Shown: piece by piece, positions 26,625-42,662 of the stretch
Numbering within the stretch: position 1 is the stretch's first letter
Layout: every line of letters begins with the position of its first letter
Assembly (NCBI GenBank): GCA_030052745.1
Contig: JANBVO010000006.1
Location: forward strand, 744,001 to 808,000
Length of the DNA: 64,000 bases
Direction of reading: 5' to 3'
Source of the DNA: Pleurostoma richardsiae
Taxonomy: Eukaryota > Ascomycota > Sordariomycetes > Calosphaeriales > Pleurostomataceae
Position numbers and translations under genes: made by a program
The notes under the pieces: model-generated
Told to the model about the DNA's origin: nothing
What the model saw: the letters and a program-made list of their open reading frames with translations, nothing else
Databases searched by the model: none

Positions 26625-28579
26625 TTAGCGAGGAGCCGCCATGAACATGTCCCAAGCATCCGCCAACTTGTCGAAGAGCTTCTCTCCGACAATCGTTTGG
26701 ATATAATCTCTCCGCCCTGTTAGTTCGGGTGCCTCAGTAGACACAAATCTGGAGTCGTCCTTGGAACTGTGTTCTGCTGCAAAATACACCATCGATCCAG
26801 GGCTGACGATATCCTGGTACGCCGTCCAAGGACTCATGCCGTTCACAAAAGCGATTATGTCTTTCGCATATCTCTCGGCACATTGCGCCTGTCCACCTGA
26901 AAGGCTTTCACGGTAATTCTGTAAGACAAACGCGATATCCAAGATGTGTGTGGCGTGGCCATTCCATGGCCCGTCCCATGGATTCGGGCAGTTAAAATGG
27001 GCCAAAAAGGCTTCAGTGCCAGCGATAGAGGCTGCGGCCCATGCCTTCACGAAGGCGCGGGTAGGAAGAGCAAACATGATATCGTTGCCCAGGTTCAGAA
27101 TCGGCTCGATGGTCTCACGAGTGTTTGCTGTGGCCGAGACATCCACTCTATATGCTGACAGGATGGCCGGCGCGATCTTCGAGTCAATTGGATTGAATAT
27201 AGTAGACAGGCAACGTCCTAAGGTTGTTGCGAGAATATCAGTTCTTCCTGCGACACGGGCATTGAAAATCATGCCCTGAAACGTAAATGAGTAATGATAC
27301 ATCAATTGTTTATCTCTACGATTAGAGGTGGGATTACTTACATCCATCTGGCAATCCGCCATGAGGACTCTCTTGCAGCGAAGCAATCCGGGAAACAGCT
27401 TGAGGAGCTCACCACTATCGGATAAGGCCATGAATGACGTTGATTGTGGGATGATGTCTCCCTCAATCAGTGGCCCTATCGGGAATCGACGCCCGACACT
27501 GTTGACAAAATCTTCTCTAGATGTATCCAAGAGCCTTTGGATCTGTCCGGTGGGGGAGAGTCTTTTGGCCCCGAGAACTTCTACGACAGAGTTGTACGAG
27601 ACTTTGCCCTGCTCGACAGGCTTTCGGCGTGGTATAGAGGTGCCGCTCATGGCCACAAGTTGATGGAACAAGGGCTCAGGAGAGTGCAAATGAAAGCAAC
27701 CGGAAACTTTCGGCATGTCAGCTCATTAAGCCCCCATCTCTAGGATCACGGCCCGGCTTTAACATTGCAAATTCTACTCACCTGCACCTGCGCTCTCTCC
27801 CACCAGGGTTACGCTGTCTGGGTCGCCGCCAAAGCCGCTAATGTGATGTTTGATCCAGAGTAGCGCAAGGCGTTGATCATCTAGGCCATTGTTGGGTTTG
27901 TATCCGGCTTGTTTCATTGCGCCAGAATAGAGGAAGCCAGGGGCTCCTAGACGGTAACTGGGACCCAGAATTCATGTCAGCAGGCACGATATGGAAAGCT
28001 ACGAAGGAGAAGCGATTCATCTTACTTGATACCCACGGAGACAACAGGCATTCCAAGAGAGACGCTCATCTGCGTGATACGAAACAGGTCATACTGCGGA
28101 AACGAACTGCTGCCTGCCGTGAAAGCACCGCCGTGCACAATCACCATCACCGGAAATTTTCCGGGACCAGAAGAACTTGGCGCAGAGATGTTGAGAGTGA
28201 GACATTTGGTGTCGGATTGGGGCAGAGGGGTATAGGGGAGGGACTTTTGGATATGCCCATATTCCAGCTCACAACTCTTGGGTGAGCTCAGTGGGAGAGG
28301 CCTATTTGAGGCAGGTTAAAGTCTGAAACCTCATCAACAGAACACGTCCTTTCAGTATTGACTCTCATACCCAAACTTTGTAGCGTTCAAGGCGCCGTCG
28401 GTGTCTGACGGATCATACTGCGGAAGCTCGCCACGCGAGAAACGATCCTTCAATGTTGCATACTGAATTCCCAGATACTGGTCCACCTCGGGAGACCTCC
28501 TCATGCCACGTATGCGGCCAATTGTTGGGTGGTGCAATGTTTCGTGTCCAGTTGCTGCCAACATGCTGAATTCTTCCAT
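26625..28579 (-). CDS. Type-B carboxylesterase/lipase family protein
   Basis: Alpha/beta-hydrolase expected to cleave carboxylic esters. Five exons: 28579-28371, 28301-28026, 27957-27782, 27706-27342 and 27275-26625, giving 558 residues, the normal length. Early motifs are QYLGIQYA and CLTLNISAP; the oxyanion strand is [10 protein letters not shown]; then [12 protein letters not shown] and [16 protein letters not shown]. The nucleophile is Ser217 in GESAGA, and the likely His lies in [13 protein letters not shown]. No signal peptide is seen at MEEFSMLA, so it is probably intracellular. It is the leftmost intact enzyme of the island. About 150 bp upstream, 28729-28745 holds three CGG triplets, a possible regulator site. 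Confidence 0.88.
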
Positions 28580-29785
28580 AGTGGAGTTTGGGGGAGGAAA
28601 GAGGTGAGGTTGCGGCCGATGATTTAGGGGTGGTGATACCAATAACAAGGTCAGGAGCAGGATCCTAGCTAACTCGAGTGAAACAACTATTAAGGAAGAT
28701 GAGTGATTGGATTGGCGGAGCTCGGAGACGGATAGTCGGATGCGGGAAATCCCATCAACGGAAGGGTTCCGAGCTCCGTAGCTAACACCCTGCCTCTGCG
28801 AGCACGTACGCGTGCAGGGAGTTTTCACGCTGGGGAATCCTGAGTAAGCCCGAGAAATTACGACCCCTTGTCATGAAGGGATTGGAATATGAATAAGCAT
28901 CTAGGAAGGTAAAAAGGGCGCGCAGTCATTAGGAGCTAAAACATGGGCATGTTCTCAAGGTATCTGGCGGCACATGTAGTAGGCACGCGAGTCACCAACG
29001 TGGGAGAGTTCCCATCGCCTCTGAACATGAGCTTGAAGAACTGAACTTGTGCTATCGACGGCGAAACGGACACTTAGCCATTCTGACCTTTAATTATCCG
29101 ACACTCCTCAAGGCGTCGGACCGGACGAATTCTCTCTTTCGGTGTAGTAAAAGCCATTTCCAGGTAGCTCATGTCTTGAAGAGGAATCAAAGAGCCATGT
29201 TCGATAGCTGTGCTTGTGACAGGAACGGCCACGCGAGATTGTGGCGGGACTTTAGCATGTGTGAGATGACCAGAGTGTAAGAGGTGCGAACGGGCTTGGG
29301 AACATCAGATTCCAAGACTAGGGACAGAGTCGGCCCTCAGAATGGCCGCCGCCCCTCGCGGACGTGAGTCGGAAAGGTCCCGGCTCAAGAAACTCGCGTC
29401 GGATGTCTTCGCTTTTTACGGTCTTCCCATGGGGAGGAGACCCTTGCTGGGTGAGGATGACAGAAGAAGCTCTCAGGGCCAATGCTTGAGGGAGTAAATG
29501 TGCAGATCAGCCATTAAAATTACTCTCAACGTAATGCGCTCGGAATAGAAGGAGAAAGACAATGGGACAATCTGGGGAATGACACCGTGGCTTGTTTCTC
29601 CGATGACTGCGGGTATAATGCGGCTAGCTGCCGCCGAGGTGATCGGAACGGGACTGGTCGGTAGCATCTACGGAAATTTCAGGCCTTCAAGAATTTATGT
29701 GCGACTGATGACTAGATTATTTGGGCTTCTAACCTTCCGCATTGCGAGTTAAGCGCCTTACTCCCTCTTACGTTAAAAACTAGAC
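28580..29785. other. Divergent space between the carboxylesterase and the dienelactone hydrolase relic
   Basis: About 1.2 kb without a supported gene. CGGATAGTCGGATGCGG at 28729-28745 and CGGAT at 29400-29404 are CGG-type half sites. The N-terminal part expected for the dienelactone hydrolase is not visible here. Confidence 0.4.
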
Positions 29786-41316: not shown

Positions 41317-42662
41317 ATGGAGTCCAAGGTGCTCGTTATAGGAGCTGGGCCCGTAGGTCTCATGGTCGCCCTTAGACTGGCCCAAGCCGGAATAAAAGTC
41401 GACGTCATTGAAAAGGAGGCCTCGCTGAGTGAAGAGCCTCGCGCGGTTGCGTACTATGCCGGTGCGCTGACGTCACTTCAGAGGGCTGGATTGATCGAGG
41501 ATATGCTCAAGGAAGGATTCGAGACCACAGGCCTCTGCTGGAGAAAGCCGCTTGTCGATGATGGCAAGGGGGGGAAGAAGTTCGGGGGCATCATCGCCCG
41601 CCTTCCCGTCCCCAGTGAGACCAACGAGGCTCACGGCATCGTCGGCACCTTGAACCTACCACAGTCAAAGTTGCTCAAGTTGTTGTTCCGAAAGGTCAAC
41701 GAGACAGGCTTTGTCTCGATCCATTTCAACACTGCTCTGACCAGTATTGAGCAGCACGCCGACCACGTGGTAGCCACAGTCGTCAAGTCCGATACCAACA
41801 CGACCATCCCTATCAAAGCTTCTTTTCTAGTAGGCGCTGATGGCGGAAGGTCGAAGACAAGGAATCTGCTCAATATTGCCTTCAAAGGCCACAGCTGGCC
41901 TGAGTATATCGTCGCTACCGAGTTTCTCTGTGATATACCTGGTACCGATCTCGAGTTCGCAACGACATTTACCGTACACCCAGTAAATTACGGCTTAATC
42001 ACTCCCCTCGAGGAGATCAAACCAGGTACAAAAACTTTGTACAGGTGTTCCATCGGGGTGAACCCTTTGGAAACGCGACCAGTCGAGGAGCTGACCTCGA
42101 AATCCTACGTCGAGCACCTGCTAAACCTCATGATTCCGGGTCCTCGGCCTCTCCAGGTAGAGATCGTGAAGTCCTCCACTTACAGAACCCATCAGCTCTG
42201 CGCTTCTACCTTCCGACGCGGCAGATGTATCTTGGCTGGGGACGCCGCTCATCTTAATCATGTGAGTAGTTTGTCTACACCTGCCAACATCTACAAGACA
42301 GAAGATCCCTTTCTAATGAATTGAAATAGCCATGGGGGGCTATGGGACTGACCACGGGCCTGATTGACGCCGAAGCTCTCGCCGATATCCTGGAAATGAT
42401 TCTTATCGCAGGGAAATCCCCAGATCTGCTCGACATTTATTCTCATACGAGGCAGAAGGCATTCCAATTCTTTGTCAATCCATTCACTACCCAGAACAAA
42501 CTACGATGCGCAAATGATCCAGAGACTGCTCATCAGGACTGGTTGTTGGGAAGACTGGCGACGGATTCTACTAAAACGAAAGCACTGCAGGATTACGGAC
42601 GACGTTATCACGAGGAATGGAGGATAGATGTGAGAGCTGCTGTACAGCAAGGGGATGCGTAA
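41317..42662 (+). CDS. FAD-dependent aromatic-type monooxygenase (PF01494-like)
   Basis: Flavoprotein of the p-hydroxybenzoate hydroxylase/UbiH class, expected to hydroxylate an aromatic ring with NAD(P)H and O2. Two exons: 41317-42261 and 42330-42662, giving 425 residues. The FAD dinucleotide fold is GAGPVG (residues 9-14) followed by VDVIEKE. The DG motif is GADGGRSKTRN, and the second FAD motif is GRCILAGDAAHLNHPWGAMGL, split by the intron just after HLNH. Length and motif order are normal. In the same orientation as the P450 and dioxygenase, it could supply the dihydroxylated ring that the dioxygenase opens; this order is inferred. Confidence 0.88.

What the first reader, a model, noticed from the sequence alone, without database searches (positions are those of the whole stretch)
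26625..42662. Candidate undescribed aromatic-degradation gene cluster
A type-B carboxylesterase, a dienelactone hydrolase relic, a Zn(II)2Cys6 regulator, a homogentisate-dioxygenase-like ring-cleaving enzyme, a P450 and an FAD ring hydroxylase lie side by side between conserved core genes. Known biochemistry of these families suggests ester cleavage, two hydroxylations, ring opening, then lactone hydrolysis. The canonical partners maiA and fahA are absent, so this does not look like the tyrosine pathway. The substrate and the pathway order are inference.
Basis: partly seen in the sequence, partly recalled or inferred. Interest (0 to 1): 0.75.

Follow-up and report, generated by a model that had tools for sequence, protein, structure and literature searches.

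The report
Fungal ring-cleavage gene cluster
A mould carries a small neighbourhood of enzyme genes that probably opens the ring of a plant-type phenol by a route related to, but apparently not the same as, the known tyrosine and vanillin routes; one of the six genes is dead and the substrate is unknown.

Summary
The window is Pleurostoma richardsiae. Five of six genes splice into intact models; the dienelactone hydrolase is a relic. The HGD-like enzyme is probably not the tyrosine-pathway enzyme: it keeps the iron ligands but has Glu404 where human HGD has His365, scores below the hmgA cut-off, and three HmgA-type genes lie elsewhere, two beside FAA-hydrolase genes. It sits in a clade beside, probably not within, methoxyhydroquinone dioxygenase MhdA. 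The FAD enzyme is closest in the PDB to PnpA and HspB, which make para-diols (recalled). Likely unit: regulator, P450, FAD enzyme and dioxygenase, making and cleaving a substituted hydroquinone; the esterase more likely acts after ring opening, as proposed for OmeA. Conservation is partial: regulator-FAD linkage recurs in Paecilomyces lecythidis and on own contig C48, but HGD-FAD linkage was not seen in ten species named in both capped lists. HGD and FAD genes have Eurotiales affinity. Substrate, order and P450 role are inference.

The parts
26625..28579 (-). type-B carboxylesterase, 5 exons, 558 aa, GESAG nucleophile motif and a His aligned with p-nitrobenzyl esterase; intact
   Evidence: paralogue at C126:586323-588413, 60-71% identical by exon
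29784..30486 (+). dienelactone hydrolase relic: 5' part missing, frame change between the conserved 3' pieces near 30010
30687..33275 (-). Zn(II)2Cys6 regulator, 3 exons, 823 aa, divergent from the HGD-like gene
   Evidence: the NCBI model P0241 starts downstream of the zinc cluster
34673..36470 (+). homogentisate-dioxygenase-like ring-cleaving enzyme, 5 exons, 515 aa; His374, Glu380, His410 (iron ligands by alignment), Glu404 at the place of human His365
37875..39825 (+). cytochrome P450, 6 exons, 529 aa; [14 protein letters not shown] and PERW motifs present; exon 38719-38877 and its introns uncertain
41317..42662 (+). FAD-dependent hydroxylase (FAD_binding_3), 2 exons, 425 aa, PnpA/HspB-like; intact
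25735..26223 (-). short open frame with a sub-threshold BTB/POZ match, perhaps a relic; not part of the pathway
   Evidence: E 0.0063, 17.1 bits, cut-off 20.5

Best explanation
A small catabolic unit (regulator, HGD-like dioxygenase, P450, FAD hydroxylase, probably with the esterase) turns a plant-type phenol into a substituted hydroquinone and cleaves its ring. Shown: gene content, open models of five genes, family relationship of each enzyme, and recurrence of pieces of the unit beyond a simple chance model. Inferred: the P450 prepares the substrate (ring hydroxylation or O-demethylation). The FAD enzyme hydroxylates para to an existing hydroxyl, replacing or adding to a substituent, and gives a hydroquinone. 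The HGD-like enzyme cleaves beside the substituent. If that substituent is alkoxy, the product is an ester, which the carboxylesterase then splits. The Zn(II)2Cys6 protein is the local activator. The DLH takes no part.
Against: No expression or biochemical data. Regulator and FAD homologues are on different contigs in Talaromyces verruculosus (one assembly) and in Penicillium malachiteum (different isolates); regulator and HGD homologues differ in Ilyonectria robusta and Melanomma pulvis-pyrius. The hmgA cut-off does not separate substrates: P0117 of the probable MhdA clade passes it with 557.8. Which clade holds MhdA is inferred from mass and identity, not from its sequence. Esterase orthology to OmeA is untested. 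The P450 I-helix reads AGMFTV, without the usual acid (motif recalled). No transporter or reductase was noticed among the cluster's frames (by eye).
Confidence: 0.42

Rival explanations
1. Not one pathway: a mosaic. Esterase and DLH relic are the remains of a copy of the C126 module; regulator, HGD-like, P450 and FAD genes arrived separately and sit together in an accessory-gene stretch.
For: Esterase and DLH paralogues lie 8.7 kb apart on C126, with a zinc-type dehydrogenase (quinone-oxidoreductase-like by eye) and an HglS-type gene between them, a regulator relative 11.4 kb from the esterase and FAA-hydrolase matches nearby. DLH is decayed. HGD and FAD genes show Eurotiales affinity, which was not tested for the esterase or P450.
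Against: The C126 region also has a regulator relative, so esterase, DLH and regulator may be an old set. FAD relatives sit beside esterase, HGD and regulator relatives at four other own loci.
Confidence: 0.32
2. A vanillate-type pathway with the same substrate as MhdA (methoxyhydroquinone).
For: MhdA is probably the nearest characterised relative and has an esterase neighbour. Own genes L019 and L025 of the 488-aa clade also have an FAD relative nearby.
Against: The window protein is in another clade, 49-51% identical to own L025 and L019, and the genome already has two genes of the probable MhdA clade, so a different substrate is more likely.
Confidence: 0.12
3. A tailoring or detoxifying gene set for a secondary metabolite rather than growth on an aromatic.
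For: P450, FAD enzyme and Zn(II)2Cys6 regulator are common in such clusters (recalled).
Against: No polyketide, peptide or terpene synthase was noticed among the window frames looked at (partly by eye, no dedicated search). Ring-cleaving dioxygenases are typical of catabolism (recalled).
Confidence: 0.08
4. A second homogentisate (tyrosine) pathway.
For: Family membership in HgmA_N and HgmA_C.
Against: Glu404 for His365, score below the hmgA cut-off, no FAA-hydrolase or maiA match in the window, and three separate HmgA-type genes, two beside FAA-hydrolase genes.
Confidence: 0.06

Closest known systems
Aspergillus niger vanillate route: VhyA, MhdA, OmeA (PMC8336404; abstract, passages and Discussion read)
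   Same: HGD-like dioxygenase, flavin hydroxylase and esterase in one route; dioxygenase and esterase genes are neighbours
   Different: The window dioxygenase is probably in another clade; its flavin enzyme is PnpA/HspB-like, whereas VhyA was annotated as a salicylate hydroxylase and is described as close to PhyA; a P450 and a regulator are clustered; substrate unknown
Homogentisate/tyrosine cluster hmgA-fahA-maiA-hppD-hmgX-hmgR (PMC3914699, passages read)
   Same: Dioxygenase family
   Different: No fahA or maiA match in the window (hppD and hmgX not searched), Glu for His365, other clade
Fungal gentisate clusters (PMC8283699 and PMC3914699; passages read)
   Same: Clustered flavin monooxygenase, cupin dioxygenase and Zn(II)2Cys6 regulator, with a P450 in Scedosporium
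   Different: The dioxygenase there is a gentisate 1,2-dioxygenase, and a fumarylpyruvate or FAA-type hydrolase is present
1,2,3,5-tetrahydroxybenzene pathway (known here only through PMC12388069 and PMC13094099 passages)
   Same: A recently added fungal ring-opening route with a proposed dienelactone-type product
   Different: Its proposed dioxygenase is a DUF3500 protein; DUF3500 was not searched for here

Membership tests
Homogentisate 1,2-dioxygenase (HmgA) | HgmA_N and HgmA_C domains and HGD fold | tested here: met
Homogentisate 1,2-dioxygenase (HmgA) | iron ligands His335, Glu341, His371 of human HGD (roles and numbers recalled) | tested here: met
   His374, Glu380, His410
Homogentisate 1,2-dioxygenase (HmgA) | His at human position 365 | tested here: not met
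   Glu404
Homogentisate 1,2-dioxygenase (HmgA) | score above the TIGR01015 cut-off | tested here: not met
   452.1 against 510.75; but P0117 of the probable MhdA clade passes with 557.8
Homogentisate 1,2-dioxygenase (HmgA) | turnover of homogentisate | not testable with these tools
   needs enzyme assay
Methoxyhydroquinone 1,2-dioxygenase (MhdA) | placement in the same clade as A. niger MhdA | tested here: inconclusive
   MhdA sequence not in hand; mass and identity point to the 488-aa clade, the window is in another
Methoxyhydroquinone 1,2-dioxygenase (MhdA) | neighbouring carboxylesterase | tested here: inconclusive
   a type-B esterase lies 6.1 kb away with two genes between, so not adjacent; OmeA orthology not tested
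Group A flavin monooxygenase, PnpA/HspB-like | closest solved relatives are PnpA and HspB | tested here: met
   166.5 and 149.6 bits, next 90.8
Group A flavin monooxygenase, PnpA/HspB-like | para (ipso) hydroxylation | not testable with these tools
   needs enzyme assay
Dienelactone hydrolase | complete open reading frame | tested here: not met
   residues 1-41 unmatched and frame change
Conserved fungal gene cluster | same families linked in another genome | tested here: inconclusive
   regulator-FAD linked in 1 of 3 species named in both lists, HGD-FAD in 0 of 10, regulator-HGD in 0 of 2; lists capped, contig lengths only

The most novel reading that the evidence does not exclude
The 515-aa HGD-like clade, whose listed members come from Eurotiomycetes, Sordariomycetes, Leotiomycetes and Dothideomycetes, cleaves a hydroquinone that is not one of the eight ring-opening intermediates listed for fungi (PMC13094099). 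In Pleurostoma it is wired, by clustering and perhaps by transfer from Eurotiales, to a PnpA/HspB-type hydroxylase that makes that hydroquinone. That would be a ninth central pathway.
Probability: 0.3. Interest if true: 0.7.

Novelty: new variant of a known kind. Interest (0 to 1): 0.42.

Why it matters
HGD-family genes are multiplied in some fungi (nine loci here; seven in Scedosporium apiospermum, PMC8283699 passage), and many relatives of the window protein are named homogentisate dioxygenase. The window gives a clade for which I found no assigned substrate a hydroxylase and regulator context that can be tested directly, and a simple sequence mark (Glu or Asp for His365) that separates these proteins from the HmgA type. 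It could widen the list of phenols that fungi can open.

Tried and rejected
GC dip as proof of transfer: the stretch 24-43.8 kb is 0.516 against 0.581 and 0.568 in the flanks, but 28 of 120 two-kb windows around the other eight HGD loci are also under 0.52, so it is not diagnostic. Transfer itself: joining the window HGD to a 12-row Sordariomycete clade or to three Fusarium rows is rejected (p 5e-5, 5e-85), but a Eurotiales clade without the window is not rejected (p 0.18), so sister or nested is open. Differential loss of old paralogues is not excluded. Class labels of tree rows were recalled from genus names, not looked up.

A C2H2 exon upstream of the regulator, as in the P. lecythidis homologue: a pattern scan of 33250-34400 found none. 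C48 esterase: its frame reads like another alpha/beta hydrolase and it was dropped. Repeats in 22-46 kb: no tandem arrays over score 50, no repeat of 30 bases or more with a 14-base seed. The PF01494 genome search scored only 18 of 134 candidates, so it was not used for counts. The fold search returned HGD and other cupins only among the 50 rows shown; PDB 9pz4, the best sequence match, is not among them.

Literature: searches returned no papers. led to FAMeDB and the A. niger papers. No paper on this cluster appeared in the listings. Two cited papers (Kato 2024, Martins 2024) are not held and are known only from reference lists.

Rows dropped: tree used 82 rows, that is 76 of the 120 HGD hits (window included) and 6 of 8 own paralogues (two too short); one search used 57 of those 82; one search used 46 of 120 FAD hits plus the window. 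The structure used 40 aligned rows. No tree was built for regulator, P450 or esterase.

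Full report
What is there. The window lies on contig C93 of a 39.4-Mb genome, and its HGD-like protein is identical to a Pleurostoma richardsiae record (Sordariomycetes, Calosphaeriales). Between 26.6 and 42.7 kb lie a type-B carboxylesterase, a dienelactone hydrolase piece, a Zn(II)2Cys6 regulator, an HGD-like dioxygenase, a P450 and an FAD hydroxylase. My spliced models with GT-AG introns and no internal stop exist for all but the DLH. The HGD model equals the NCBI protein letter for letter; the others have no such confirmation. 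No Pleurostoma record appeared among the 120 listed FAD relatives, and the NCBI regulator model starts downstream of the zinc cluster, so public annotation seems incomplete here.

The relic. A paralogue of the DLH piece, 70% identical, lies on contig C126 and has an N-terminal part in an open frame. Against it the window has counterparts for residues 42-243 only, in pieces whose reading frames disagree.

The dioxygenase. It keeps His374, Glu380 and His410, aligned with the human iron ligands (numbers and roles recalled), but has Glu404 where human HGD has His365. Of the 120 listed proteins, the window's own included, 110 have Glu there, 5 Asp, 2 Ile, and 3 could not be read. The three own HmgA-type genes have His, and two of these sit beside FAA-hydrolase genes. 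The protein scores 452.1 against the hmgA cut-off of 510.75, but P0117 of the probable MhdA clade passes that cut-off, so the test is only suggestive. In an 82-row tree the window protein, the 488-aa clade and the HmgA type are apart, and own genes L019 and L025 fall in the 488-aa clade (a quick tree with long-branch warnings). The tagged mass of 55.5 kDa given for A. niger MhdA matches the 488-aa clade and not the window clade, and the published HmgA-MhdA identity points the same way. This is inference, since the MhdA sequence itself was not in hand.

The hydroxylase. Its two best solved relatives are PnpA and HspB, well ahead of the rest. Both replace a para substituent by hydroxyl and give a para-diol (recalled). 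This is the substrate type that an HGD-like enzyme cleaves, and it is the main argument for the order FAD enzyme, then dioxygenase.

The esterase. In A. niger the mhdA neighbour omeA encodes an esterase whose deletion accumulates 4-oxo-monomethyl adipate, so it is placed after ring cleavage (PMC8336404). By analogy the type-B esterase here more likely acts last than first. Its serine motif and an aligned histidine are present. Orthology to OmeA was not testable.

Is it a cluster? In the P. lecythidis assembly tagged Plec18167 a homologue of the FAD enzyme (52%) and one of the regulator (42% over 56% of it) carry gene numbers 002199 and 002203 on contigs of the same listed length. In the own genome FAD and regulator relatives are 1.7 kb apart on C48, FAD and HGD relatives 0.9 kb apart on C76 and 10.8 kb on C2, FAD and esterase relatives 1.2 kb apart on C90, and regulator, esterase and DLH relatives lie within 25 kb on C126. 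That is 6 pairs within 15 kb against 1.53 expected, P 0.005 under uniform placement. Against this, HGD-FAD linkage was not seen in any of the ten species I found named in both lists (P. lecythidis, F. nematophilum, A. navahoensis, D. macrodidyma, Cadophora sp. MPI-SDFR-AT-0126, E. elasticus and A. niger with an HGD of the window's clade; Leptodontidium sp. 2 PMI_412, R. lignyota and P. verhagenii with another HGD), judged by listed contig lengths. Some of these pair different strains. Regulator-FAD linkage fails in T. verruculosus and P. malachiteum, and regulator-HGD linkage in I. robusta and M. pulvis-pyrius. The test is coarse: the HGD and FAD lists show only the best 120 of 6246 and 3588 hits, a listed protein may stand for several, only the longest contig is given, and names are cut short.

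Origin. The window HGD falls with Eurotiales rows at 100/100 support, and joining it to two Sordariomycete groups is rejected. The FAD enzyme is sister to a P. lecythidis protein at 100/99. The regulator's best foreign match is also P. lecythidis. A shared history with Eurotiales, by transfer or by loss elsewhere, is likely for the first two and possible for the third. The GC dip adds nothing.

Literature seen. FAMeDB (PMC13094099, passages and reference list) lists eight fungal ring-opening intermediates. PMC8336404 was read as abstract, passages and Discussion; PMC12388069, PMC8283699, PMC3914699, PMC12335040, PMC12470466 and PMC5595782 as passages only. None of the passages describes this gene set.

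Verdict. An ordinary kind of thing, a fungal aromatic catabolic neighbourhood, with a dioxygenase clade at its centre for which I found no assigned substrate.

Noticed in passing
G000 contigs C62, C126, C52, C2, C57, C76, C77, C46 and the window: Nine HGD-family loci in one genome: three HmgA-type, two of the probable MhdA clade, the window's, and three others that sit near isochorismatase-like genes (shown by Pfam for C57; by eye for C77 and C46).
   Followed up: partly
G000 contig C126:572-598 kb: A second catabolic-looking neighbourhood: regulator relative, FAA-hydrolase, esterase, zinc-type dehydrogenase, 2-oxoadipate dioxygenase/decarboxylase (HglS-type) and apparently intact DLH.
   Followed up: partly
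window 39110-39250: P450 I-helix reads AGMFTV without the usual acidic residue (motif recalled); activity may be altered or the model may be off.
   Followed up: no
window 25735-26223: Weak BTB/POZ remnant in the AT-richer left edge of the low-GC stretch.
   Followed up: no
window 41317-42662: The FAD hydroxylase gene seems missing from public annotation: no Pleurostoma protein among the 120 listed relatives.
   Followed up: partly
PDB 9pz4: Best sequence match of the window HGD in the PDB is named homogentisate dioxygenase but has Gln at the His365 place in the alignment; it may have another substrate.
   Followed up: no
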